From IMG/VR virus record IMGVR_UViG_3300001373_000001, positions 53,990 to 117,989 of that record: 64,000 bases of DNA; one strand, 5' to 3'. Of this stretch, positions 1,040 to 34,311 are shown in pieces (the stretch's first letter is position 1; each line of letters starts with the position of its first letter). The position numbers and the translations under genes were made by a program. The notes beneath the pieces are model-generated. The model saw only the letters and a program-made list of their open reading frames with translations, was not told the origin of the DNA and ran no database searches. This stretch comes from a virus.

Positions 1040-1777
1040 ATGTTTCTAACTGAAAATAAAGTAAGTTTAATAAACGAAAATCTAATTAATGAACCTAATA
1101 TATTAAAAACAATAGAAAAATGTACAAGACTTTGTTATGATTCTGGACATCTTACAACTCAAGATTCATATAAAAAAATAACTAAAAGTATTATAGATCA
1201 CAATCATTTAGCAATGTTAGAGCATTATAGTTTATCATTCGAAATAACTTGTAGTCGTGGTTGTAGCATGGAGATTATAAGACATAGAATGGCAAGCTAC
1301 GCTCAAAAATCCACAAGATACATTAATTCAACTAAAAGAAATTTTAATATCATTAATCCATACTGGACAAAACTAGAACTCGGAGAATATATTTATATCC
1401 AAGCTCCAAACATGTTTCAAACAGATGAGATTGCTATTATTAAAAATGGCGAACAAAATATAGTTACTCATGCATTTAATGAGCTTGACTGGAATTTGCC
1501 ACACAATCAATTTTTAAGAATGTGCTTAATGTCAGAGAAATTTTACTTTGAAACTATGACAATGAATAATTCACCTCAAGATTGTAAGTGCTTTATATTA
1601 GATTGTTTTGAAACTACTATAGTAATGACTGCTAATATCCGAGAATGGATTCATTTTATTAATTTAAGATATTATGAAACTACTGGAAAAGTATATCCAG
1701 AAATGAAAAAAGTAGCTGAAATGATATTAGATATTCTAAGCATAAAATTACCATTTGTATTTAAAAGAGGTGAATAA
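1040..1777 (+). CDS. thyX: FAD-dependent thymidylate synthase ThyX
   Basis: 245 residues. The ThyX signature RHR-x2-S-x4-S-x-R is present as RHRMASYAQKSTRY (about residues 81-94). The C-terminal region also looks ThyX-like (NLRYYETTGKVYPEMKKVAE). The enzyme methylates dUMP to dTMP using methylene-tetrahydrofolate, FAD and NADPH, directly downstream of the dUMP-producing dUTPase. Start: AAAGGAGAG lies 8-9 bases before the ATG. The stop is 2 bases before the next gene, so the two are translationally linked. ThyX is frequent in anaerobic Firmicutes and their phages. Confidence 0.95.
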   Translation: MFLTENKVSLINENLINEPNILKTIEKCTRLCYDSGHLTTQDSYKKITKSIIDHNHLAMLEHYSLSFEITCSRGCSMEIIRHRMASYAQKSTRYINSTKRNFNIINPYWTKLELGEYIYIQAPNMFQTDEIAIIKNGEQNIVTHAFNELDWNLPHNQFLRMCLMSEKFYFETMTMNNSPQDCKCFILDCFETTIVMTANIREWIHFINLRYYETTGKVYPEMKKVAEMILDILSIKLPFVFKRGE

Positions 1778-1779
1778 TT

Positions 1780-2316
1780 ATGAATTACTTATATTGTATA
1801 ATTGGAAAGTCTGGAGTGGGTAAAACTACTGTTGCTACTGCATTACAACAAGAATATGGGTTGAAGTCAATTGATTCTTATACAACTAGACCTCGCAGAT
1901 CAGAGAATGAAGTTGGTCATATATTTGTTAGCAATAAAGAATTCGAAGTTATAAATCAAGATTTAGTTGCATATACATTTTTTGATAATAATCATTATGG
2001 AGTTACCTTAGATCAAATAGAAGAATCGGATATATATGTTGTTGATTGGGTTGGATATCAAGATTTACTCAAAAACTATGAGGGTAATAAAATTATAAAA
2101 TCAGTGTATTTAGATGCAAAAGAATCAGTATTGTTAAGTAGAATGTTGAGACGAGAAAATGATTATCTTAAAGCTCAAACAAGAATTCATCATGATAAAA
2201 TGAAATTCAACAAGATTAAAAAGAAGTGTGATTATTGTATTGAGAATACTTTGTTAAATAAAACTATACAAGAATTCAAGCGCATTATGGACTACAACAA
2301 TTCTTTGAAAGGCTAA
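1780..2316 (+). CDS. gmk: Guanylate kinase-like nucleoside monophosphate kinase
   Basis: 178 residues. The P-loop is GKSGVGKTT near the N-terminus. SYTTRPRR followed by E-x2-G corresponds to the GMP-binding region of guanylate kinases, and a Gly-Val/Tyr-rich segment (HYGVTLDQI) follows as in the family. It would phosphorylate (d)GMP to (d)GDP, completing the nucleotide-supply module. An RBS AGAGGTG lies before the ATG. It begins 2 bases after thyX and ends 4 bases before the polymerase gene, so it lies in the same operon. Specificity for another monophosphate cannot be excluded. Confidence 0.85.
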   Translation: MNYLYCIIGKSGVGKTTVATALQQEYGLKSIDSYTTRPRRSENEVGHIFVSNKEFEVINQDLVAYTFFDNNHYGVTLDQIEESDIYVVDWVGYQDLLKNYEGNKIIKSVYLDAKESVLLSRMLRRENDYLKAQTRIHHDKMKFNKIKKKCDYCIENTLLNKTIQEFKRIMDYNNSLKG

Positions 2317-2320
2317 TGCT

Positions 2321-5300
2321 ATGAGATATAATAACTACCATAAGCATACACACGAGTCAAATATTAAAACTTTAGATTGTGTAGTCAAACCAATTGACTA
2401 TATTAAACATAGCCTTAATTTAGGTCATACAAGCTATTCTAGCGTTGAACATGGTTGGACTGGTAAATACATGTTAAATTATGATTTATGTGTAGAAAAT
2501 GGATTAAAATTGATATATGGAGTAGAAGCATACATTGTATTAGATAGATTCCAAAAAGATAAGTCTAATGCACATATAATTATTATAGCCTTAAATAGAT
2601 TTGGATTTAAGCAATTAAATTTAATGCTGTCAGAAGCAAATAAGACTGGTCTATACTATAAAACTAGAATAGACTTGGAATTATTACTTAAACTTAATCC
2701 AGATGATTTTATAGTCACTACAGCTTGCTTGGGTGGAATAGCAAATGCTAAATATAATCTAGACTTTATTGATCCAATCCATAATCATTTCGGGAACCAT
2801 TTCTATTTAGAGATTCAAAATCATATATCAAATGAGCAAGCAGAATTAAATACTAGACTCCATAAGCTATCAATTGATAGGAATATAGAGCTAATACATG
2901 CAAATGATAGTCATTATATATTAGGATCAGATAGTAAGTATAGAGATTTATTATTGAAAGGCAAAGGCATAAATTACGCTGTAGAAGATGGATTTAAGCT
3001 TGATTATCCAGATTATGATGTTATATTAGATAGATATAATAAACAAGGTGTATTAGCCTCTAAAACGGTAATTAAAGCTATACAAAATACATTGATATTT
3101 GATAACTGTGAAGATTTGAAATTTAATAAAGAAATTAAGATGCCAGCTTTCAAATGCAATGATACTACAAAAGAACTCAAAAAGATATTGAACAAAAAAT
3201 ATAAACAATCTGATGATAGAGATGTTTCTAGGAATAAAGAATATATAAAGTGTATTAAAGATGAACTTGATATAATAGTTAATACAAATATGCAAGATTA
3301 TTTTTTGTATAACGAAAAGATAATTAGAGTTTCAAAAGAAGATTATAACTTAGTTCTAACTAGAACAGGAAGAGGGTCGTGCGTAAGTTTTTATTTAAAT
3401 AAACTATTAGGATTCACAGAGATTGATAGACTTGTAAGCCCTATAACTCTATATCCTACAAGATTTATGTCAATTGAAAGAATATTATCTACTAAGAGTT
3501 TACCAGACATAGACTTTAATTGTGCCAATGTAGAACCAGTTGTAAAAGCTTCTAAACAAATTCTTGGCGAGAATGGTATTTATCAGATGATTGCTTTTGG
3601 TACTATGCAGAAGTCAGAAGCATTTCGAAACATGTGTAGAGCATTAGATTTAGATATAGAATTATATAATGAAGTTGCAAAAGACTTAGATCAATATTCA
3701 GAACATCCAGATTGGAAAGATATAATTGAATCATCAAAAGTATTTATTGGTACTATAGACAAGATATCTCCAGCGCCATGTTCTTATCTAATGATGGATA
3801 AGGATATATCAGAAGAGATTGGATTAATCAGAGTAAATAATCTTATTTGTTGTGCAATGGATGGAATGACCGCAGAAGTATTTAAATACCTCAAGAACGA
3901 CTTCTTAGTAGTAAAAGTATGGGATATAATATCTAAAACTTTTGAGGCTATAAACAAGCCTATACCCAATATCAAGCAACTAGAAGAATTACTTGATAAT
4001 AAAGTTTGGGATTTATACGAAAATGGTCTTACAGCTACACTAAACCAAGTTGAGACACAGTTATCAACAGGATTAGTCAAACAATATAAGCCTAAAAGTG
4101 TAGCAGAACTTTCAGCATTTGTTGCTTCTATTAGACCAGGATTCGCAAGTCTAGTGAATAAATTTATATCTAGAGAATACCATACAACAGGTATCAAAGA
4201 ATTAGATGATTTATTAGAAGATAGTTACCATTATATGTTATACCAAGAATCTATCATGAAATTTCTAATATGGTGTGGTATAAAGGAATCTGAGACATAC
4301 GACATCATCAAAAAGATTGCTAAAAAGAAATTTAAAGAGCATGAATTAATAGAGCTTAAAACTAAACTAATAAATGGATTTAAGGCTAAAACAAATGAAG
4401 TTGATAAGTTTAATGAAGTTTGGCAAGTAGTAGAAGATGCAGCCAATTACAGCTTTAATGCTAGTCATAGTTTATCTGTAGCATATGACAGTTTATACCA
4501 AGCTTATCTTAAGGCTAATTATACTATAGAATATTTTACTGTTTGTTTAAATATTTTCAAAGAAGACTTAGAGAAGACCAACAGGATAATAGATGAATTA
4601 GATCATTTTAATATAAAATTATTCTCGGTTGATTTTGAGCATTGCAATGATGATTATTCATTTGATAAAGAAACTCAGACTATTTATCGAAGTGTATTGT
4701 CTATTAAAGGTTTTGGAGAAAAGACTAATATTAGTTATATAATTAATAAGCTTAACAAGAATAAATTTGATGATTTCATAGACTTACTAAATGCATTGAT
4801 AGAGAATGGGTTACAACAATCAAAGATCAATATATTAATCAAACTTAACTTCTTTAAAAAGTTTGGAGATATTAATTACTTACTAGAAGTATCTAGAATA
4901 TATAATCTATATAATACTACTAAGATACTATCAAAAGAGAAAATTGAGAAAGCTAATTTAAATATAGAAATTGTTAAAAAGCACTTTAAAAAAGAGACTG
5001 AAAAAAGCTATTCAGATATAGAATCCAATGTAAATTTTATTAAAGATATTTGTATAGATATAAAATATGAAAATTCCGATATAATAGATATTATACAATA
5101 TGAAATGCTTTACTATGACATGATTACAAGTACATTCAAGATTAGCAAATCAGTATATTATGTTCAAGATATTTTAGGAAAAAAGTCTAAAACTATTAAA
5201 TGCTATAATCTTAAAACTGGTAAAACAATTATGTTTAAATTAGATTATAGAGTAATATTTAATTCCAAAAAGAATATGTATAATTATAATAAAGTGTTAA

Positions 5301-5446
5301 TAACTAAAAATACATTTATAAAAATTATAAAATCTGAGTGGCAAGACAAGATGATGCTAGTTGATAGTAAATGGATACCAAGCGGTGAAAAAATATTAGC
5401 AATAAAAAGGTTCGATGGGTTAAATAATAAGCTTCAAACTATGTAA
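2321..5446 (+). CDS. DNA polymerase III alpha subunit (DnaE-like, with PHP domain)
   Basis: 1,041 residues, a C-family replicative polymerase. The N-terminus is a PHP domain: YHKHTHES corresponds to the HxHxH motif, then EHG, TACLGG and NDSHYI follow. The palm contains GRGSCVSFYL and PDIDFN. The first two catalytic aspartates of the canonical PDxDxD are kept and the third position is Asn. No separate 3'-5' exonuclease insertion is visible, so it is closer to DnaE than PolC. It would replicate phage or episome DNA. It follows the nucleotide kinase after 4 bases with a weak RBS, suggesting coupled translation. The C-terminal 150 residues (about 890-1041) are Lys/Ile-rich and unlike standard OB or tau-binding regions I can recognise. 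Confidence 0.9.
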   Translation: MRYNNYHKHTHESNIKTLDCVVKPIDYIKHSLNLGHTSYSSVEHGWTGKYMLNYDLCVENGLKLIYGVEAYIVLDRFQKDKSNAHIIIIALNRFGFKQLNLMLSEANKTGLYYKTRIDLELLLKLNPDDFIVTTACLGGIANAKYNLDFIDPIHNHFGNHFYLEIQNHISNEQAELNTRLHKLSIDRNIELIHANDSHYILGSDSKYRDLLLKGKGINYAVEDGFKLDYPDYDVILDRYNKQGVLASKTVIKAIQNTLIFDNCEDLKFNKEIKMPAFKCNDTTKELKKILNKKYKQSDDRDVSRNKEYIKCIKDELDIIVNTNMQDYFLYNEKIIRVSKEDYNLVLTRTGRGSCVSFYLNKLLGFTEIDRLVSPITLYPTRFMSIERILSTKSLPDIDFNCANVEPVVKASKQILGENGIYQMIAFGTMQKSEAFRNMCRALDLDIELYNEVAKDLDQYSEHPDWKDIIESSKVFIGTIDKISPAPCSYLMMDKDISEEIGLIRVNNLICCAMDGMTAEVFKYLKNDFLVVKVWDIISKTFEAINKPIPNIKQLEELLDNKVWDLYENGLTATLNQVETQLSTGLVKQYKPKSVAELSAFVASIRPGFASLVNKFISREYHTTGIKELDDLLEDSYHYMLYQESIMKFLIWCGIKESETYDIIKKIAKKKFKEHELIELKTKLINGFKAKTNEVDKFNEVWQVVEDAANYSFNASHSLSVAYDSLYQAYLKANYTIEYFTVCLNIFKEDLEKTNRIIDELDHFNIKLFSVDFEHCNDDYSFDKETQTIYRSVLSIKGFGEKTNISYIINKLNKNKFDDFIDLLNALIENGLQQSKINILIKLNFFKKFGDINYLLEVSRIYNLYNTTKILSKEKIEKANLNIEIVKKHFKKETEKSYSDIESNVNFIKDICIDIKYENSDIIDIIQYEMLYYDMITSTFKISKSVYYVQDILGKKSKTIKCYNLKTGKTIMFKLDYRVIFNSKKNMYNYNKVLITKNTFIKIIKSEWQDKMMLVDSKWIPSGEKILAIKRFDGLNNKLQTM

Positions 5447-7027: not shown

Positions 7028-7053
7028 AAACTAATATGTTTACATTAGTTATC

Positions 7054-7312
7054 TGCTTTCAATATAGCAATTATTAGCTTCAATTCTAACAAATTAGTAA
7101 AGCTTAGTATCGTTTCAATGTACAATTGTTTAATATTTTCAACTGTTTCAATAATAGCAATTGTTGTCAACTAACCGTCAAGTAACCGTCAAGTAACCGC
7201 ATGTTTTCAGCTTTCAATATACAATTGTCGTTTATGTCTGCTTGCAACATAGCAATTATTAAATCTAAATTAATATCAGTTTCAATATACAATTGTTTAA
7301 ATATTTTCAACT
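7054..7312 (-). repeat. Decayed CRISPR repeats at the distal end of the array
   Basis: At least six degenerate copies of the array repeat core (tttcaa-ta-CAATTG) start near 7055, 7112, 7145, 7210, 7240 and 7279. They form about three units of 60-65 bp: 7112-7171, 7210-7271 and 7279-7342, the last running into the first perfect repeat. Within the stretch, TAACCGTCAAG is tandemly repeated at 7172-7193 with a partial third copy to 7200. The side facing away from the cas gene is the expected place for old, decaying repeats. Alternatives are a partition-type iteron cluster for the nearby ParA, or anti-repeat RNA sequence. Confidence 0.6.
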
Positions 7313-7603
7313 GTTTCAACATAACAATTGTTGTTTGCAAACTAATTAAGTTGAATTCAATTTAAATTAATGGTTTGCAGTTTCAACATAACAATTGTTG
7401 TTTGCAAACCACATACTAACAAAACAAAAGTTAAAACTCGAACGTTTCAACATAACAATTGTTGTTTGCAAACGCAGAAATAGTTGGTAATGGTAGTAAA
7501 AAAACAAGGTTTCAACATAACAATTGTTGTTTGCAAACACTGCATTTTTCGATTATTAACCATCCACCATAATGTTTCAACATAACAATTGTTGTTTGCA
7601 AAC
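7313..7603 (-). CRISPR. CRISPR array: five identical 30-bp repeats, four spacers
   Basis: Perfect 30-bp repeats lie at 7313-7342, 7380-7409, 7444-7473, 7509-7538 and 7574-7603. On the plus strand each starts GTTTCAACAT, has AACAATTGTT in the middle and ends GTTTGCAAAC; the last two blocks are perfect palindromes. Spacers are 7343-7379 (37), 7410-7443 (34), 7474-7508 (35) and 7539-7573 (35). I infer leftward transcription: on the minus strand the repeat ends TTGAAAC as is usual for repeat 3' ends, it follows the cas gene, and decay is at the far end. Spacer 2 equals 13709-13742 in the holin gene. Spacer 4 matches 28571-28605 in a tail gene at 33/35. No cas1/cas2 adaptation genes are present. 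Confidence 0.97.
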
Positions 7604-7829
7604 GCTTTTCGAAACTAGCTTTCAAAAATTACAAAACCTCTAACTAATCATTACAACTAGCTTTTAAGATTTTGTTCCAAGTACAATTGCATTTTGCTAT
7701 CCAAGTGGATAGGGTGTCTATATAGTTCTTGGAAACTCAATAGACTTAACGAGCGGAAGCCAACTACCAAGTAGAATTACGACGAATACTCGCTTTTAGC
7801 CGCCAAATCGGCTTAAGTACTATTATATA
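7604..7829 (-). ncRNA. Candidate tracrRNA / guide scaffold between cas12f and array
   Basis: This 226-bp gap holds no gene but is locally richer in G+C and hairpins. Two are perfect: AGCCG-6-CGGCT (7798-7813) and CTATCC-4-GGATAG (7697-7712). On the minus strand AGCGAG pairs with CUCGUU further on (with one G-U). The layout (cas gene, structured RNA, array, all leftward) is that of type V-F loci, where a tracrRNA is encoded here. Possible anti-repeats on the minus strand are the GAGTTTCCAAGAAC segment (about 7738-7725) and the GCAATTGTAC segment near 7690-7681. I cannot decide between them without folding. RNA ends are inferred, not seen. Confidence 0.6.
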
Positions 7830-9101
7830 TTACTTTTTATTTTTTTTCAACTTCTTTTTTATTATTTCTTGATTATCTGGGTTGGAAATATTTTTAGCAG
7901 CATTATAATCTGCATCAAGTTTTACTCCACAATTAACACAAACAAATTCATCTCTTTTTACTCTATTGTCTTTATCTGTATGCCCACACCCACTACACTT
8001 TTGACTAGTGTATCTTGGGTTTATAAGTTTAACTTCAATTCCAACTTCATCAGCTTTGTATTTAATCTTTTCTTGTAAATCGAAATAGCTCCAATCTTTA
8101 AGAAATAACTTATCTTTTTTAATATTTGATAAGTCTTCCATCTGTATTATTTTACAGTTATTCTTAACTGCTAATCCTACAATATATTTAGAATATTTAT
8201 GGTTAATCAAATCTTTAAAATTAGCTATTTTCTTTCTCACAACTCTTACATATTTAGACCTATGTTTATATCCTCGACCTTTTATAGCATCGCTTTTTAT
8301 GCTAGATTGCAAAGACTTTAATAAAGATTCTTGTTTCTTTCTAAAGCTGTCTATTTCGCCTCCTCTTATGTGATATCTTTTTAAATTATTATTAAATGCC
8401 ATATAAGCAGCATTTACTATTCCCATGTCTATACCCATTATATTTTTATCACTTAAAAGTAACTCTTTCTTTTCCATACAATATGTTAAATTAATGAACC
8501 ATTTATTCTTACTAAAAATTATCATTGAAGCTCCGATTTTATACTCTCCAGATAGCACGCTTTCAATTATTTTCTTTTGGTAATTACCATCAACTTTAAT
8601 TTCTACGCAAACATGGCAACTACCTTCGTTTCTTGCAAATAACCTTAAGTCTACATAATACTTATTTTCATTTTCAATAACTTCTATGCTCTTAGAATGT
8701 AAATCTATAATACTATTTTTATAAGATGGAATAGACATCTCACCTTTTAAAAACTTCTTCTTACTATCATTCCATTTCTTGCAACCTCTTTGAATAGAAG
8801 TTGAAATATTAGCTTTCGATAGCATTGGGTATTCGGTTCTGATTACTTTATCACAATACCCACTAAAAGATTTGTATCCTAATATACTTAATATATCTGG
8901 TTTACACTCATGTTTGATATAATAATCCGAACAATAATTATTCCATTCCCAATTTAATCTAATTGTTTTGTTCAATACTTTTTGTGTTTGGTCTTGAAAC
9001 TCCACAAGTTGTTTCTTAAAATCTTTGAAATCTATACCCTCAGAATCGATTATCTGAAAGCGCATCACTTTATTTATTGTATCAATTTTTATTTCGTCCA
9101 T
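7830..9101 (-). CDS. cas12f: Compact type V-F CRISPR effector (Cas12f-like nuclease)
   Basis: 423 residues, the size of the smallest Cas12f proteins. RuvC-I is GIDMGI (Asp225) and RuvC-II is QMEDLS (Glu322). A Cys4 zinc finger follows (Cys369, 372, 388, 391). RuvC-III is DADYNAAKNI (Asp396/398). All catalytic residues look intact. The segment KGRGYKHRSK (about 274-283), after an R-x-H-I region, resembles the Gly-x-Gly basic motif between RuvC-I and -II in Cas12f. The enzyme would cut double-stranded DNA guided by tracrRNA:crRNA, probably as a dimer. GGAGG lies before the ATG and overlaps the stop of the upstream gene, so it is the third gene of the parA operon. A TnpB transposon nuclease is the alternative, but the adjacent true array and lack of transposon ends favour Cas12f. 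Confidence 0.87.
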   Translation of the reverse strand: MDEIKIDTINKVMRFQIIDSEGIDFKDFKKQLVEFQDQTQKVLNKTIRLNWEWNNYCSDYYIKHECKPDILSILGYKSFSGYCDKVIRTEYPMLSKANISTSIQRGCKKWNDSKKKFLKGEMSIPSYKNSIIDLHSKSIEVIENENKYYVDLRLFARNEGSCHVCVEIKVDGNYQKKIIESVLSGEYKIGASMIIFSKNKWFINLTYCMEKKELLLSDKNIMGIDMGIVNAAYMAFNNNLKRYHIRGGEIDSFRKKQESLLKSLQSSIKSDAIKGRGYKHRSKYVRVVRKKIANFKDLINHKYSKYIVGLAVKNNCKIIQMEDLSNIKKDKLFLKDWSYFDLQEKIKYKADEVGIEVKLINPRYTSQKCSGCGHTDKDNRVKRDEFVCVNCGVKLDADYNAAKNISNPDNQEIIKKKLKKNKK

Positions 9102-13430: not shown

Positions 13431-13769
13431 CTACTTAGTTTTTGGTAATTTAAATACATTACTTTCGATTAAAGTTTTAATCAACTTATCAAATCCGTTT
13501 TTCTTACTTAAACCAAGTCTACTTGTCATTTCAAGAACTATATCAAATGCATTCTTGAATCTATCAATATTTTTATCATTCTTGTATAATTGTTCTGATA
13601 GGTTTACAGCATGTCCTACGATCGATTCTAGAGCCTTAATCTTATCCAAGGTCAAATTATACCTTGATTTATATAAGTCTTTTAAATACAAGAATAACGT
13701 GTATAGAACACATACTAACAAAACAAAAGTTAAAACTCGAACGGAATTATTCATTATTAACGCATACAT
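13431..13769 (-). CDS. Holin, LL-H type
   Basis: 112 residues. One N-terminal membrane helix (about residues 9-29, VLTFVLLVCVLYTLFLYL) is followed by a charged helical region with KALESIVGHAVNLSEQ and NGFDKLIKTLIESNV. This matches the layout of the phage holin LLH family. It would permeabilise the membrane to release the endolysin encoded just upstream. GGAGAG lies 8 bases before the ATG. It is the last late gene. Codons 8-18 are identical to CRISPR spacer 2 of this genome (13709-13742). Confidence 0.8.
   Translation of the reverse strand: MYALIMNNSVRVLTFVLLVCVLYTLFLYLKDLYKSRYNLTLDKIKALESIVGHAVNLSEQLYKNDKNIDRFKNAFDIVLEMTSRLGLSKKNGFDKLIKTLIESNVFKLPKTK
13709..13742 (-). other. Protospacer identical to CRISPR spacer 2 (34/34)
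   Basis: All 34 bases of spacer 2 (7410-7443) recur here, inside the membrane-helix codons of the holin. On the coding (minus) strand the flank 5' of the protospacer reads AATTCC and the 3' flank reads TTCTAT. With leftward array transcription the crRNA has the same sense as the mRNA, so it would pair with the template DNA strand and not with the holin mRNA. Confidence 0.95.
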
Positions 13770-13787: not shown

Positions 13788-14534
13788 CTATTTGCCAAAC
13801 ATTTTTAATACTTTACTTAACATTACAGCAACTTCTTCTCTTGTTGCAGTATTCTTTGGATTAAAATTACCATTCTCATCTCCAACAATAATTTTGTTTC
13901 CGCATAAATGATTTACTGAATCTCTCGCCCATTCTGCTATCTCGTCATGGTCATTAAATATTCTAGCTTCGACTTTTTCAATAACTGGATCAGTCAATGG
14001 AACATCTAAATAATATAATATTCCAACAGCAACATTATTTGAAATTTCATTCATTTGATTTACTATAAAATTAGCATCATCTTTATTATCATGAAATGCA
14101 ATTTCTACAAGGCTTGCAGGAGCATTAGTGGATTCTAATTCATACATGCTTTTACCATCGCCATAAAAATTCTTACCAACCTTTACTCCTCTGTCTTTAG
14201 TAGGCGTTAGAGGTTCTAGTTGACCATAAATAGCACGAGATAACTTCTCACCTTCTCCACCAAACATATGACAAAAAACTTCACAACCACGATCATCACC
14301 AGTATTAGCATTTGAATGTATTGCGATATGCACATCTACGTTTTTCGAGTTTGAATCTTTTACTATTTTAGATAGCGTCCAAGTATTCTCACTCCTATAA
14401 ACTATCACTCCTCTAGATTGAAGTATCTTTTGTATGTTATCAGTTATCAAAGCCATGCGATAAGCTTCTGTGCCATACTCGCCAACTCCAACATTATCAA
14501 ACTGATTTGATCCACTTAAATAAACACTTTTCAT
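13788..14534 (-). CDS. Endolysin: N-acetylmuramoyl-L-alanine amidase with SLH module
   Basis: About 248 residues from the ATG at 14534, which GAGGTG precedes by 6 bases; a GTG at 14543 is within that site. The catalytic domain (about 1-170) has the Amidase_3 features: an early acidic zinc ligand region (GEYGTEAYRM), VDVHIAIHSNAN and a late catalytic Glu in SLVEIAFHDN. The C-terminal 50 residues match an S-layer homology motif (ARDSVNHLCGNKIIVGDENGNFNPKNTATREEVAVML), likely the wall-binding part. It cleaves the peptide from muramic acid to lyse the host. Confidence 0.88.
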   Translation of the reverse strand: MKSVYLSGSNQFDNVGVGEYGTEAYRMALITDNIQKILQSRGVIVYRSENTWTLSKIVKDSNSKNVDVHIAIHSNANTGDDRGCEVFCHMFGGEGEKLSRAIYGQLEPLTPTKDRGVKVGKNFYGDGKSMYELESTNAPASLVEIAFHDNKDDANFIVNQMNEISNNVAVGILYYLDVPLTDPVIEKVEARIFNDHDEIAEWARDSVNHLCGNKIIVGDENGNFNPKNTATREEVAVMLSKVLKMFGK

Positions 14535-14544
14535 AAAATTCACC

Positions 14545-27229: not shown

Positions 27230-29272
27230 TCATAATCTATATGCATGATAGTCATATCTTGCATAAGTTATACCATTGACAGAAAATATTTCATATGATG
27301 GATAAGAACTCGTTAGTTTACCATAATATATATTGTCTGCAACATAAGTATATACTTTATCAGCAGGAGTATCTTGGCAGAAATATCTTTTACCCATCAT
27401 TACAGCATTATAACCCATATAATAATACCCATTTCCATATACGTCACTAACTAAACTTTGCTCAGTACTAGCTATTTTAGTAGCATCATTTATACATCCC
27501 TTAACAACAAAAACTTCTTGACCATCGTGAATTCTAGTAGCACTAAAATCTCTATATAGCGGATAAGCACTATTAATATCTGAAAATGGTAACATATACT
27601 GACCATTTAATCCATCGATAACTTTAAACTTTACAGTATAGTTACTATTGTCAATATAGAAGAATAATTCACCCATGTAAAAAGCTTGGATTGATTCATT
27701 ACTTGGAAGTCTAACAGATACATCTATGATCTTTTGTACAGCAATAGAACGTGCCATTCGAATACTAATACCATTCTTAGTTAGACTAGCGTAGTTAGTT
27801 GTTAAATTACTTGCAAGTGCATCATCGCAATAAAAATTAATTGTCCAACCTAGCAAGTCTTGAAACATTGTAGCACAAGTATTTACAACTCTAGAATTAA
27901 TACTTTTTCCTGCTTCGGATGTAGTAATTCTAGCTGTTGTAATGCCATAAGAATCTGTTCCTGCACTAGTACTTAAAACAGTTTTAACACCATAAACATA
28001 ATCATCATTTTTCATGCTAGAAACTACATTGAAATTATATCTATTTGAACCAGTGCCAGTAAATACTTTAATGCTTCTAGCACGTTTGAAAGATGAATCA
28101 TAGTAATATAATTTAGATTTTTCACCAAGACTTATAACAGGAGGAGTAAAATTAGGATATCCGTCATTATAAGCGTTAAGATACCAACACGTTGTAAAAT
28201 CCCATCCAACAAATGTTGATTGAGTTTTCATTTCAGAAGTTGTTTTAGGAGTTGCATAAAGTTCTGGAAATATACAAGTATCTGAGTTATAATAACAAGA
28301 TGTCATAACAATTGGTGGATCGCTTATAGCACCAAGAAAAGCTCCAGGCTCTTCTTCCGTTAATTCGGTTTGATTTGTATAATTAAGTACACAATAGCTA
28401 TTAATATAAGTGTTATCATAATAGGTAAATGGTACAAATCCTGCTACAAAGCGAGGATTGATTGTAACTATTAGATTACAAATAGAAAAACAGTTTATAA
28501 CATAAATAGCATCAAGTTCAGAAGCAAAACCGCCAGTATATCCATATTGACAAGTAATTGTTGAAACAGAACTACATTTTTCGATTCTTAACCATCCACC
28601 ATAATTTACAAATCCACCAAAAGAATCTATACCACCAAAAGTTGCTGTTGAATGACAATTTTCTATATAGTTATATTCTTCAAAATTAGCACTCCATCCT
28701 TCGCAACCTCCAATAAATCCTCCGACATTATAAGGTAATTTTGAACCAGTATTGTTAATTATAAGACTTGTAGTACAATCTTTTATATAACTAAATGTAT
28801 TACTTGGATAAAACTCACCAGACAAACCTCCAATTGTACTAGGGAAATAAACATTACAATTTGAGTTTATAGTTAAACTTGTAGTTATGTTTTCAATTTT
28901 ACCAGAATAAATACCACCCGCTAATGCACCTAATTTCAAAACTGAATCAGTCCAAGTTGCATCATTTAAATTTATTATAGCATTTTCTATATTAATATTC
29001 TTTATAGTATAAGCTGTTGTAATATCACTAAATAGCCCCCAATACCAAGTATCAAATGGATTCATAACTAGATTAGTGATTTTAAATCCACCGCCATCAT
29101 ATCCTCCTGTAAATTCTCCACCAATTGGCGACCAACTTGGGTAATCACTTAAGTCAATATCAGCTGTCTGTAAGAAAAATGATGATAAATAATTTCTAAC
29201 ATAGTTTAATTGTATTGAATTGCTTACAAGGTATGGATCAAACTCCGTACCAGTACCGCCATCAAAAGACAT
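27230..29272 (-). CDS. Tail adhesin with beta-helix (GLUG-like) N-terminal domain
   Basis: 680 residues. The N-terminus (about 1-370) starts GGTGTEFDPYLVSNSIQL, then ADIDLSDYPSWSPIGG and FTGGYDGGGFKITNL. That series is typical of right-handed beta-helix adhesins with GLUG-like repeats. From about 385 (KLYYYDSSFKRARSI) a second domain is shared with the neighbouring 320-residue protein, ending in EIFSVNGITYARYDY. AGGTGAT precedes the ATG. It is a host-recognition candidate. Codons at 28571-28605 match CRISPR spacer 4 of this genome at 33/35. Confidence 0.7.
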   Translation of the reverse strand: MSFDGGTGTEFDPYLVSNSIQLNYVRNYLSSFFLQTADIDLSDYPSWSPIGGEFTGGYDGGGFKITNLVMNPFDTWYWGLFSDITTAYTIKNINIENAIINLNDATWTDSVLKLGALAGGIYSGKIENITTSLTINSNCNVYFPSTIGGLSGEFYPSNTFSYIKDCTTSLIINNTGSKLPYNVGGFIGGCEGWSANFEEYNYIENCHSTATFGGIDSFGGFVNYGGWLRIEKCSSVSTITCQYGYTGGFASELDAIYVINCFSICNLIVTINPRFVAGFVPFTYYDNTYINSYCVLNYTNQTELTEEEPGAFLGAISDPPIVMTSCYYNSDTCIFPELYATPKTTSEMKTQSTFVGWDFTTCWYLNAYNDGYPNFTPPVISLGEKSKLYYYDSSFKRARSIKVFTGTGSNRYNFNVVSSMKNDDYVYGVKTVLSTSAGTDSYGITTARITTSEAGKSINSRVVNTCATMFQDLLGWTINFYCDDALASNLTTNYASLTKNGISIRMARSIAVQKIIDVSVRLPSNESIQAFYMGELFFYIDNSNYTVKFKVIDGLNGQYMLPFSDINSAYPLYRDFSATRIHDGQEVFVVKGCINDATKIASTEQSLVSDVYGNGYYYMGYNAVMMGKRYFCQDTPADKVYTYVADNIYYGKLTSSYPSYEIFSVNGITYARYDYHAYRL
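28571..28605 (-). other. Protospacer matching CRISPR spacer 4 (33/35)
   Basis: Spacer 4 (7539-7573) differs here at only two bases (28574 and 28587). In the adhesin frame these are a third-position Cys TGT/TGC change (synonymous) and a second-position Arg-to-Ile change. This is the pattern of a homologous gene from a related phage. Read from the end that would abut a 5' PAM (minus-strand flank TTTGTAA), the first 18 bases match perfectly. Confidence 0.95.
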
Positions 29273-30258: not shown

Positions 30259-33200
30259 TCAATTCAAAGACCATAAATTATTTACAGCAACTAGATTAAT
30301 AGACTCTTTTGGATAGACTACCATATTTCCATTTGCTAAATTAGTGCTTAGAAATACTAAATAATTACTAGCATTTACTATCTTTCTAATTGCACCATTT
30401 GAACCTGTACAGGATGGCATTGTGAGGGTAATGTTGCCTGTATTTCCATAAACATTTATAATATCATATCCACTTATTAAAAGCGTCGTATTGGCTGTTA
30501 CAGTCTGTATATCATACATTGTATAGTCGTTAGTATCAATCCAGCAATCTTTTGCAGTTGGAGCAGTAGGTGGATCATCTTGAACCGCTATGATCTGCAT
30601 GGTTTCCACAACTTCTTCAACTTTTGTAACGAAATCTGGTAATCCATCAGCACTAATCGAATATTGACCATCTTTATATAATTGACTCCACTTGCCTGTA
30701 AAGTCTGGTGACATCTGTACGCCATCAACATAAGCTGTTTGAGTTGCATGAATATTTGTAATTACTAATATCATTCCAGTACATCCACTATGCCCTGCTT
30801 CGGAAGGATTAAAAGATGCTGAGCATCTAGAATCTTGCCAACTAGTTGTGACAGGAAAATCAATAGCAGTACCAGTTAAGTCGTTCTCGCTATCAGTTAG
30901 GGTAAAGTAATTTGTATTAGTTACATCATAGACTTGCAATCTGATCTGACCTTGGTTTCTAAATAAGCTTATTCTAGATGGTAGACTATTAAACCAGTTA
31001 GGATTAACTTTAGCGGTTTCGGATTGTGAAGTTGATATTCCTGCAAGTAACTTTAATGAATATGAACCATAGTAACTTGAGTTATTATCTGACGTACCAT
31101 TCGACCAATAAAGTGGTATAAGCGTATCTGGATCAAATACCTCAAAACTACTATTCCAAATCATATTTTTAAAGTAGTCTAAGAACCTCGGATCAATACC
31201 ATATTGATCTATCATAGTAGTAGTATTTTCACCTTTAATTGTAATTCCTTCTGGTGTAATAGTCACAATACCATTATCGTCCCCAATGTATGCATTTTTA
31301 ATATATAAACTGCCACTTGTGTCTGCATAAAACACAGGAGTAGTGCCTTTCTCGATTACAATTCCATCAGTTGTATTCAATTTAATAGTGCTATCTTTAG
31401 TATCTGAATTAATTATAAAGTCAACATTAGTTGCTATCAACTCATTATCATTAATTGTAACTGATCCATCTTTGTTAGTAAGTACCCATAAAGCATTGCA
31501 ATATATACCATGACTTGTTATAGCAGTAGTATAAGTTGCCCAGTTATCATCTGACATTACAATCTTATCTTCTAAAATACGCATAGAACCAGTTATTTCA
31601 GAATCCTCAATTGCTTGCATAAACATACCACGTCTATTTAGTACTATATCGCTTGTAACGGCTATTGGATTACTATCGGTTGTTATAACGCTATCTGTCG
31701 TTAGAATAGTATCTTTATCATCTGAATACTCTTCGTAAGTAGATTTATTCTTTTCAAGAACTACACTAGATTTCTTACTATTAGCGATGATAGCTGTAAT
31801 ATAGTCTACATCATCGTTGTAGTAAGGCTTCGTACTTACAGTTACAGATAAGCTATTACCACTAGGATTATGTTTGATCTCAGTTATTCTTGGCGTATAA
31901 GCTATTTCTAATGGACTATATTCAACATCAATTTCAGCACCTAAAATAAGTTTATTCCATGTAAAATTCTCACTAGCATAGTTATACACATTTACCATAT
32001 CAATTGAAAATTCTATTGGTGGACTAGCTTTAAGTGCAAGTACTTGAATACCAAATTGTAATAATTCTGTTTTATCAGAAGTATCACATTTTACAGTGTC
32101 TTCATTAATAAATTGAAGCAATTCTTGTAGCTGTATAGTTGTTAAGTTATTTTCGTAAGCTAATAGATCTGTAATATCGTCCATGTCTGCATTAATGTAT
32201 TGAATATCTAGAACTTTACCATTAATAGCACCATTATTACTTGCAATTTCAATACCTTTAAGATAAGATTCATTATGCCAATAAGTATAATCGTGTCCAT
32301 CTATAAGGGTATCTCTCTTAATACAGCTATCTTCATTCTCTTGCAAATTCTCAAGCTCAGTATTTAAACCTTCATCTATAACATATAATGCATCTAACTC
32401 AGATTGAGCAGTAGACAAGTTCGATTGCAATGTTGCGTACTCTGTACCTTTAGAATCTTTTAATGCATCATGAGCCTCTAATGCATCAATTAGGCTTTGT
32501 GACATATAATCAGTAGTCATAAAATAAGTAAAATCATCAATGTATGATTGACCAGTTATATTAACAGAGCTTATTGTAATTAAGTCTTTGCCCTCAACAT
32601 AAAGCCTTGTTATTATCTCATCAACTTTAATATCTTGGTTAAAAGACTTCATATAATTCTCAGCGCTAATTATCAATCCTGTGTTAGCTGGAAGTTCATC
32701 ATAAGTCTTTACTTGAATAGTATAATTATAATTATCAAAAAATACGATACAGTTATATAAATTTTCTATAGTTCGAATGACTTCTAAAACACTAGCTTCG
32801 GTTATCTCAAATACTCTATAAGAATTTTCAATACTAGCGCTAACATAAGACACCGTCCAAGTATTAATTAATAAGTTTTGAATAATATAATCTAGTATTC
32901 CACCTTGTGTTCCATCTGTTGGTACAAACGTTGTTCCAGTGTATATTCTTCTAGTATTAACAAGTCCAGTAGAGTTCTTGAATTCTTTGAGTTTAATTTT
33001 ATTTAATGCATAATGTTTAGAATAACAACTTATATTTTTTACATCTCTATCAACACCTTGTGTCTGTATCTTATAGATATACATATACTCTCGTCTTAAA
33101 AATGTATCATCCATATATACTTCTACCAATAATATTTGACCAGTTTGAATATTATCAAAATGAGGATTATCTGTATTATCTATATCATTCCAACTCTTAT

Positions 33201-33378
33201 ATATTGTAAAGTCAAATTCATTCACAGTTTTAATTTTTTGAGAATAGTTAGTTATCTCTATACAATTAGTAATACAATGTACTACTTCGTGAATTGGAGT
33301 AGATGTAATATTAGTAAATGGTTTGCATATATATACTTCATATCTATATTCTTGATAAGTAATATTATCATTAAGCAC
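30259..33378 (-). CDS. Tail-associated protein (Tal / prophage endopeptidase-tail type)
   Basis: 1,039 residues, GTG start preceded by AAAGGTGGTG. Residues about 1-480 match the siphovirus tail-hub fold: VYICKPFTNI, EFDFTIYKSW, EASVLEVIRTIENLYNC and NSLSVTVSTKPY near 500. A short helical stretch (about 300-350) is followed by beta modules: GMFMQAIEDSEITGSM, then IKNAYIGDDNGIVTITPEGITIKG. The C-terminus (about 960-1039) is a small beta-domain (TLLISGYDIINVYG, ITLTMPSCTG). It closes the tail tube below Dit and carries the adhesins encoded downstream. Confidence 0.8.
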   Translation of the reverse strand: MLNDNITYQEYRYEVYICKPFTNITSTPIHEVVHCITNCIEITNYSQKIKTVNEFDFTIYKSWNDIDNTDNPHFDNIQTGQILLVEVYMDDTFLRREYMYIYKIQTQGVDRDVKNISCYSKHYALNKIKLKEFKNSTGLVNTRRIYTGTTFVPTDGTQGGILDYIIQNLLINTWTVSYVSASIENSYRVFEITEASVLEVIRTIENLYNCIVFFDNYNYTIQVKTYDELPANTGLIISAENYMKSFNQDIKVDEIITRLYVEGKDLITISSVNITGQSYIDDFTYFMTTDYMSQSLIDALEAHDALKDSKGTEYATLQSNLSTAQSELDALYVIDEGLNTELENLQENEDSCIKRDTLIDGHDYTYWHNESYLKGIEIASNNGAINGKVLDIQYINADMDDITDLLAYENNLTTIQLQELLQFINEDTVKCDTSDKTELLQFGIQVLALKASPPIEFSIDMVNVYNYASENFTWNKLILGAEIDVEYSPLEIAYTPRITEIKHNPSGNSLSVTVSTKPYYNDDVDYITAIIANSKKSSVVLEKNKSTYEEYSDDKDTILTTDSVITTDSNPIAVTSDIVLNRRGMFMQAIEDSEITGSMRILEDKIVMSDDNWATYTTAITSHGIYCNALWVLTNKDGSVTINDNELIATNVDFIINSDTKDSTIKLNTTDGIVIEKGTTPVFYADTSGSLYIKNAYIGDDNGIVTITPEGITIKGENTTTMIDQYGIDPRFLDYFKNMIWNSSFEVFDPDTLIPLYWSNGTSDNNSSYYGSYSLKLLAGISTSQSETAKVNPNWFNSLPSRISLFRNQGQIRLQVYDVTNTNYFTLTDSENDLTGTAIDFPVTTSWQDSRCSASFNPSEAGHSGCTGMILVITNIHATQTAYVDGVQMSPDFTGKWSQLYKDGQYSISADGLPDFVTKVEEVVETMQIIAVQDDPPTAPTAKDCWIDTNDYTMYDIQTVTANTTLLISGYDIINVYGNTGNITLTMPSCTGSNGAIRKIVNASNYLVFLSTNLANGNMVVYPKESINLVAVNNLWSLN

Positions 33379-33392
33379 TTATATCACCACCT

Positions 33393-34151
33393 TTAAGAGT
33401 ATATTGGAAACTGGAGTCTGAATTGTAATGTACATTGAGATGAAACAACTAAGTTATTAGTTCCTTGTACAAGTCTAAACCAGTTCTTATTAAAGTTTAG
33501 ATATTTACTTTGACCAGTGGAGCTAATTATTTGTTTCTTAGCATTATCTATATAAACTGTTTCTCCTATAGCTACAACATTCTGGACAGTACTTCTACCT
33601 CCATCACTGTTGTTTTGGATACTAAAAGAACTAGTTCCAGTTATAGTAAACTCGAATTGTGGATAGTAATAAGTAGCTACATTTGAGAGGTTATTTATTA
33701 CAATAGATTGAGATCCACTTATTGTATAGGTTGGAGTACTAGCAGTTGTTAGAGCATATGGATATTTAGATTTGAATGCTACTTCGAAATAACCTTCATT
33801 CATTCCATTTGTTAGAAAATCGACTTGATTAGTTGCAAACAAGTAATATATCTTTTCTGGTTCATCTTCACTGTAAAACGGCTTATAAGTATCTTTAAAT
33901 AGCCATGAAGCAATTGTCTTTAATTTAGCAGTAGTCATATCATTTGTTAGCGTAGAAAATGCTAATGTAAACTGATATTGTTGAGCTTTAGACCTACATG
34001 TATATGGAGCAGAAGCCATTGTTGGAAAATCTTCTATCATATCTCTAGCTGGTATGTATGGTACATTAATCATTCCGCTATTAGTTCTTATTAATGAAAC
34101 TCCCATAGAATCACTAGAGATTCCATCATAGTAAAATTTAGTTCCAATCAT
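33393..34151 (-). CDS. Distal tail protein (Dit-like)
   Basis: About 252 residues from the ATG at 34151, preceded by AAAGG at 9 bases. An in-frame ATG at 34202 lies in the upstream terminator and has no site. The N-terminus MIGTKFYYDGISSDSMGVSLI is the typical Dit opening. FEVAFKSKYPYALT and YYPQFEFTITG match the galectin-like C-terminal part. Dit forms the hexameric hub between tail tube and Tal, which is the next gene. Confidence 0.85.
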   Translation of the reverse strand: MIGTKFYYDGISSDSMGVSLIRTNSGMINVPYIPARDMIEDFPTMASAPYTCRSKAQQYQFTLAFSTLTNDMTTAKLKTIASWLFKDTYKPFYSEDEPEKIYYLFATNQVDFLTNGMNEGYFEVAFKSKYPYALTTASTPTYTISGSQSIVINNLSNVATYYYPQFEFTITGTSSFSIQNNSDGGRSTVQNVVAIGETVYIDNAKKQIISSTGQSKYLNFNKNWFRLVQGTNNLVVSSQCTLQFRLQFPIYS

Positions 34152-34177
34152 TAAAATCATCCTTTCATTCCTTAAAA

Positions 34178-34311
34178 TAAAAAAATCTGGTGCATTATAC
34201 AAAAGAGGACTCCAAATATCTAAAATACCTTAATAAAGAAATTAGAGATTATCTTTATTATAAATACTTGCATTAAAGATATTATAGAGTTTCTTTAATA
34301 TAATACACCAG
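34178..34311 (-). terminator. Branched terminator after the tape measure gene
   Basis: On the minus strand 13-base arms (34299-34311 with 34187-34199, one G-U) enclose two perfect hairpins: 8 bp at 34272-34299 and 9 bp at 34231-34260. A U-run of eight follows. It therefore folds as a cloverleaf-like terminator just past the tape measure stop. Confidence 0.65.

What the first reader, a model, noticed from the sequence alone, without database searches (positions are those of the whole stretch)
7539..7573. Spacer 4 matches a tail adhesin gene with codon-like differences
33 of 35 bases match 28571-28605. The two differences are one silent third-position change (Cys) and one second-position change (Arg/Ile). 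This is how homologous genes of related phages diverge, so the spacer was probably taken from a sibling phage's adhesin gene. The 18 bases nearest the expected PAM side still match perfectly.
Basis: partly seen in the sequence, partly recalled or inferred. Interest (0 to 1): 0.82.

Follow-up and report, generated by a model that had tools for sequence, protein, structure and literature searches.

The report
Phage CRISPR spacers matching its own genes
A bacterial virus carries its own miniature CRISPR cutting system, and two of its four guide sequences match the virus's own genes, one of them perfectly, which suggests guides taken from its own lineage and raises the question of how it avoids cutting itself.

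Summary
Confirmed: spacer 4 (7539-7573) matches 28571-28605 at 33 of 35 bases, with the differences described. The larger fact lies next to it: spacer 2 (7410-7443) matches 13709-13742 at 34 of 34, inside a holin-like lysis gene. The 118-kb record has overlapping ends (117,890 bp unique) and is a phage with plasmid-type RepA_N and ParA genes. It carries a Cas12f (type V-F, AsCas12f1 group, catalytic residues present), a tracrRNA-like scaffold and five identical repeats; cas1, cas2 and cas4 were not found. Self-matching looks unusual: in 17 other phage records with a related effector and array, 0 of 64 spacers match their own record above background (best 23/31). No sibling phage was found, and near records may be hidden from the searches, so the sibling source is unproven; an older form of the phage's own gene fits as well. 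Two PAM-distal mismatches are unlikely to protect the phage, and spacer 2 has none. Both own sites lack the T-T at PAM positions -3/-2 that AsCas12f1 and OsCas12f1 need, so I infer, weakly, that missing PAMs spare it. It works like phage-borne CRISPR in inter-phage conflict: a known kind with an unusual self-match.

The parts
7539..7573 (-). spacer 4 (nearest the effector), 35 nt
   Evidence: 33/35 to 28571-28605
7474..7508 (-). spacer 3, 35 nt, no own match
   Evidence: best 24/35 in the record
7410..7443 (-). spacer 2, 34 nt, perfect own match
   Evidence: 34/34 to 13709-13742
7343..7379 (-). spacer 1, 37 nt, no own match
   Evidence: best 25/37 in the record
7313..7603 (-). CRISPR array: five identical 30-nt repeats (7313, 7380, 7444, 7509, 7574), the only array found in the record
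7048..7312 (-). partial, degenerate repeat copies beyond the effector-distal end of the array
   Evidence: read; repeat families D2, D3, D5, D6
7640..7815 (-). tracrRNA-like scaffold (limits approximate)
   Evidence: core shared with AsCas12f-type loci in the alignment; anti-repeat duplex no better than shuffles (122 of 300 as low); no Rfam match
7822..7850 (-). sigma70-like promoter match (11 of 12) at the end of the effector gene, before the scaffold
   Evidence: 34 such matches in the region against 25.6 expected, so weak
7830..9101 (-). Cas12f effector, 423 aa, AsCas12f1 group, D225/E322/D398 present
13709..13742 (-). own match of spacer 2; 5' flank in guide orientation ends TTCC
13431..13769 (-). 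112-aa holin-like gene holding that match from base 28 of the coding sequence
   Evidence: phrog_608 holin, E 1.3e-7; next to an endolysin gene 13788-14543; offset
28571..28605 (-). own match of spacer 4; 5' flank in guide orientation ends GTAA
27230..29272 (-).
   Evidence: position near Dit 33393-34202 and minor tail protein 30259-33378; no named family

Best explanation
A phage with plasmid-type maintenance genes carries a compact type V-F CRISPR-Cas12f locus (effector, tracrRNA-like scaffold, four-spacer array; no adaptation genes found). Two spacers were taken from DNA of its own lineage, a sibling phage or an earlier form of itself, probably inserted by a host's Cas1-Cas2. The guides would let a cell carrying this phage cut incoming relatives in a lysis gene and a tail gene. 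The phage's own copies are spared mainly because the bases next to them are not a PAM for this enzyme, rather than because of the mismatches. Shown: the locus, the two own matches, the catalytic residues, and that no cas1/cas2/cas4 is detected. Inferred: expression, cutting, the sibling target, the PAM and the sparing.
For: Effector: PADLOC Cas12f E 3.1e-119, AsCas12f1 structures over the whole length at E about 1e-95 to 8e-94, D/E/D in 5 of 5 rows of A1. Own matches 34/34 and 33/35. Scaffold core shared with AsCas12f-type loci. No cas1, cas2, cas4 in the record, with positive controls ringing. Own flanks at -3/-2 are T-C (spacer 2) and T-A (spacer 4), whereas AsCas12f1 needs NTTR and OsCas12f1 YTTH; the tree puts the effector with 10 other rows, among them Oscillospiraceae ones, at 97/96. 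Precedent: archaeal viruses with mini-arrays against each other, whose own loci carry mutations or deletions (passages of PMC6858448), and phage spacers against other phages (passages of PMC7162821).
Against: No sibling was found, so no target with a PAM is known. The PAM of this enzyme is not known. 87% of sites in this genome lack T-T at -3/-2 (NTTN 12.8%), so two own sites without it are expected by chance 76% of the time. The anti-repeat is not supported by energy. Expression is untested. Part of the array is degenerate.
Confidence: 0.5

Rival explanations
1. Passive self-capture: a host Cas1-Cas2 took fragments of this phage's own replicating DNA into the array it carries. The spacers have no use and persist because the sites lack the Cas12f PAM or the locus is silent.
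For: Perfect own match of spacer 2; no adaptation genes of its own; no T-T PAM at either own site; a degenerate array tail.
Against: If arrays carried by phages commonly picked up self DNA, other phage arrays should show it: 0 of 64 spacers in 17 records do above background. The mismatches in spacer 4 need later drift.
Confidence: 0.22
2. Assembly mixture: the metagenomic consensus joins the array of one phage strain to the genes of a related strain that it targets.
For: The record comes from IMG/VR and its ends overlap by 99 bp, as an assembler's circular contig does; a target strain's genes would match perfectly.
Against: One contig with overlapping ends; both matches lie in the same gene cluster far from the array; mixing was not tested because reads are not available.
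Confidence: 0.13
3. Own-gene control: the guides hold Cas12f on the phage's own lysis and tail genes as a repressor without cutting, keeping late genes quiet.
For: Both guides have the sequence of the coding strand and so pair with the template strand; spacer 2 lies 28 bases into the lysis gene; both are late genes.
Against: Catalytic residues are intact; the full-length match would favour cutting if a PAM were accepted; spacer 4 lies in mid-gene; two guides of one orientation are expected by chance one time in four.
Confidence: 0.06
4. The matches are chance similarities.
For: None.
Against: 150 shuffles each reach at most 25/34 and 26/35, against 34/34 and 33/35.
Confidence: 0.001

Closest known systems
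AsCas12f1 (type V-F1, former V-U3) and OsCas12f1
   Same: Effector similar over its whole length (E about 1e-95 and 1.7e-84; that 9nzq is OsCas12f is inferred from its 433 aa), catalytic residues, scaffold core, repeat downstream of the effector.
   Different: About 40 to 45% identity to the nearest rows; carried by a phage; PAM unknown; two guides match the carrier.
[quoted passage not shown]
   Same: Virus-borne array, no adaptation genes, spacers that hit the virus's own close lineage.
   Different: Those lack cas genes and their own loci carry mutations or deletions; here an effector is present and one own site is a perfect match.
CRISPR systems of huge phages (PMC7162821, passages), including type V-F
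   Same: Phage-borne compact arrays with an effector and often no adaptation genes; [quoted passage not shown]
   Different: Self-matching spacers did not appear in the passages seen.
Type V-U Cas14a genes on Clostridium novyi sensu lato phages and islands (PMC8473940, abstract and passages)
   Same: Small effector beside arrays on clostridial mobile elements, with phage spacers against related phages.
   Different: There the phage-borne case lies beside a partial I-B locus; no own match of a phage array appeared in the passages seen.

Membership tests
Type V-F (Cas12f) CRISPR-Cas | Cas12f effector by profile | tested here: met
   PADLOC Cas12f E 3.1e-119 over residues 9-417; Pfam Cas12f1-like_TNB 3.9e-23. 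NCBIfam names it only as guided TnpB, 187 bits over a cut-off of 100; its Cas12f2 model is far under its cut-off
Type V-F (Cas12f) CRISPR-Cas | RuvC catalytic residues and zinc ribbon | tested here: met
   D225, E322, D398 invariant in 5 rows, kept in 46, 47 and 46 of 47 rows; the cysteines align. That these are the catalytic residues is recalled; two AsCas12f chains carry Ala at the first
Type V-F (Cas12f) CRISPR-Cas | CRISPR array next to the effector | tested here: met
   Five identical repeats
Type V-F (Cas12f) CRISPR-Cas | tracrRNA between effector and array with an anti-repeat | tested here: inconclusive
   Scaffold core aligns; the repeat duplex is no better than mononucleotide shuffles; no Rfam match
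Type V-F (Cas12f) CRISPR-Cas | PAM-dependent DNA cutting | not testable with these tools
   needs an assay
Virus-borne array in inter-virus conflict | array on a virus genome | tested here: met
   Terminase, portal, tape measure, Dit, endolysin on the same record; ends overlap
Virus-borne array in inter-virus conflict | spacers match a related virus | tested here: inconclusive
   They match its own genes; no sibling found, with near records possibly left out
Virus-borne array in inter-virus conflict | own target mutated so that self is spared | tested here: inconclusive
   Spacer 4 two mismatches, spacer 2 none; PAM side lacks T-T in both but the enzyme's PAM is unknown
IS605-type TnpB transposon gene | transposon ends or TnpA, guide from the element's flank instead of an array | not tested
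   A five-repeat array with different spacers argues for CRISPR; element ends were not looked for

The most novel reading that the evidence does not exclude
The phage keeps full-length guides to its own lysis and tail genes on purpose: at sites without a cutting PAM its Cas12f binds without cutting and restrains late genes while the phage lives as a plasmid, and the same guides cut relatives that carry a PAM, so that one array serves as both repressor and weapon.
Probability: 0.05. Interest if true: 0.9.

Novelty: new member of a known kind. Interest (0 to 1): 0.5.

Why it matters
If a phage can carry a guide that matches its own genome perfectly, the difference between self and rival rests outside the guide, most simply in the PAM. 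That is a clear, testable case of how a virus with a CRISPR weapon avoids cutting itself, and the two sites give ready-made substrates. It also asks how spacers enter arrays on phages that lack cas1 and cas2.

Tried and rejected
Sibling search: exact spacer 4 in both alleles, exact repeat and exact spacer 2 gave no match in IMG/VR; relatives of the tail protein and of the holin-like protein gave none; a degenerate pattern for the peptide around the spacer 4 site gave none; megablast of 24 kb and blastn of 7.4 kb gave none in the phage collection, nor did tblastn of the two target proteins. All these answers warn that near records may be left out, so they are weak evidence of absence. Terminase search in the genus of one Clostridium genome: 2 of 68 genomes, best 29% identity; in 391 genomes of its class: 0 at 1e-50, with no positive control. 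The host stays undetermined. Spacers 1 and 3 were searched only in the own record and in the loci held.

Rows dropped in the self-match survey: of 34 IMG/VR loci, 17 records gave the 64 spacers. Not counted: L080, L082 and L092 (5 spacers scanned only against the 13 kb or less that was held; none matched outside its array), L009, L083 and L103 (short or unclear arrays), L085 (near copy of L084), L100-L102 (repeats of another type), and L075, L077, L088, L089, L090, L099 and L105 (no array found by my simple finder). Spacers of L091, L096, L097 and L098 were trimmed by hand. Records held: 1,007,791 of 1,011,365 bases; many are fragments, so an own match outside them could be missed. Only the five best rows per spacer were printed.

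Considered and set aside: a shared motif on the other side of the two own sites (AGA before the plus-strand match, off by one base between the two); two sites are too few. A promoter match before the scaffold is within reach of chance. Structure prediction was not run, as it would not decide the question.

Full report
What is there. The window is bases 53,990-117,989 of a 117,989-base IMG/VR virus record. Its two ends share 99 identical bases, which is what an assembler leaves on a circular contig; I take it as circular with 117,890 unique bases. It is a phage: terminase large subunit, portal, tape measure, Dit, minor tail protein, baseplate and endolysin genes are recognised. It also has a RepA_N replication gene and a ParA-like gene, which suggests life as a plasmid; this is inference. 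The nearest named terminases are those of SPbeta-like Bacillus phages at 28.8% identity. The host is unknown.

The CRISPR locus. Five identical 30-nt repeats and four spacers lie at 7313-7603. It is the only array found in the record by my finder. The neighbouring gene 7830-9101 (minus strand, 423 aa) is a Cas12f: PADLOC Cas12f at E 3.1e-119, and AsCas12f1 structures align over the whole length at E about 1e-95 to 8e-94. Residues D225, E322 and D398 are kept. In a tree of 47 effectors it falls in an 11-row set (97/96) with Oscillospiraceae loci and phage loci, nearest identities about 45%. Between the gene and the array lies a stretch that shares the tracrRNA core of AsCas12f-type loci. Against this: the expected pairing between repeat and scaffold is no stronger than in shuffled sequence (122 of 300 shuffles as low), and Rfam shows nothing. 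Genes cas1, cas2 and cas4 were not found, while the same searches rang in 9, 7 and 8 of 14 control genomes.

Orientation. The array lies downstream of the effector. On the effector's strand the repeat is GTTTGCAAAC...GTTGAAAC, like GTTTGCGAGC...GTGTGAAC in the Sulfoacidibacillus locus L020.

The own matches. Spacer 4 matches 28571-28605 at 33/35 with 18 matching bases from the PAM side; mismatches at guide positions 19 (Arg/Ile) and 32 (silent Cys). Spacer 2 matches 13709-13742 at 34/34, 28 bases into a 112-aa gene with a holin profile match (E 1.3e-7) next to an endolysin gene. Shuffled spacers never exceed 25/34 and 26/35 in 150 trials each. Spacers 1 and 3 have no own match above background.

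Is self-matching usual? Homologous effectors were collected: 58 loci in GTDB genomes, 34 in IMG/VR. For 17 IMG/VR records with an array I took nearly the whole record (1,007,791 of 1,011,365 bases) and compared 64 spacers with their own record. None matches outside its array above background; the best own hit is 23/31 in AT-rich sequence. Against 2 of 4 here, Fisher p = 0.0026 by spacer, but spacers of one array are not independent, and by record (1 of 1 against 0 of 17) p = 0.056. Many of those records are fragments.

Where the spacers came from. I found none by DNA, protein or pattern, but the tools say that records very near the window's genome may be left out, so this does not weigh much. 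The two substitutions fit a sibling or an older own allele alike. The perfect match of spacer 2 shows that the source is at least as near as the same species of phage.

Why the phage survives. If the effector cuts, spacer 2 should destroy its own genome. The mismatches of spacer 4 lie at or beyond the end of the 20-nt protospacer used by AsCas12f1 (passage of PMC11662939), and an engineered OsCas12f1 lost only little activity from single mismatches at most positions (passage of PMC10090079). The remaining simple safeguard is the PAM. AsCas12f1 needs NTTR, OsCas12f1 YTTH and RhCas12f1 NCCD. The own flanks are TTCC and GTAA: neither T-T nor C-C at -3/-2. Both have T at -3 and another base at -2; at the spacer 4 site that base is the silent third position of a Val codon, so a PAM there could be lost without changing the protein. 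This is suggestive only: 87% of sites in this genome lack T-T, and the T/not-T pattern occurs at 23% of sites, 5% for both. The PAM of this enzyme is not known.

Comparison with what is known. Virus-borne mini-arrays that act against related viruses are established in archaeal viruses, where own loci carry mutations or deletions that prevent self-targeting (passages of PMC6858448; review passages of PMC11656645). Phage-borne type V-F systems, arrays without adaptation genes, and phage spacers against other phages are described for huge phages (passages of PMC7162821). Small Cas14a-like genes beside arrays on clostridial phages, and phage-to-phage spacers, are described in PMC8473940 (abstract and passages). 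Self-targeting spacers in bacteria and their escape by mutation are reviewed in PMC6990116 (passages). I saw no report of a phage-borne Cas12f array with a perfect own match in the searches; these cover open-licence papers only, and a 2022 Cell paper on virus-encoded CRISPR systems that I recall was not available.

Verdict. It is better described as two own matches of a phage-borne Cas12f array, one perfect. It belongs to a known kind; the self-match with an apparently intact nuclease is the unusual part and can be tested directly.

Noticed in passing
window 7410-7443 and 13709-13742: Spacer 2 is a perfect 34/34 match to the phage's own holin-like gene; not part of the finding as given.
   Followed up: yes
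window 7048-7312: Several partial, degenerate repeat copies at roughly 28 to 68 base steps beyond the effector-distal end of the array.
   Followed up: no
window 1040-5446: The phage carries ThyX (Thy1) and a DNA polymerase III alpha homologue with a PHP domain.
   Followed up: no
L083, L088 and L013: Some related effectors have Asn in place of a catalytic Asp (L083 at the first, L088 at the third); the Ruminococcus albus plasmid protein reads GVNLGV at the first. They may bind without cutting.
   Followed up: no
L160 and L161 (handle G070): Terminase relatives in a Clostridium-group assembly carry 9 in-frame TAG codons each, as in a phage that reads TAG as a residue.
   Followed up: no
L044, L045, L047, L049: Cas12f loci in Clostridium and Sarcina have repeats ending in ATTTAAAT, which resemble clostridial type I-B repeats as I recall them; they might borrow the host's adaptation machinery.
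   Followed up: no
L095 9683-9900: A second repeat array of another sequence lies 3 to 4 kb from the first on the same phage record.
   Followed up: no
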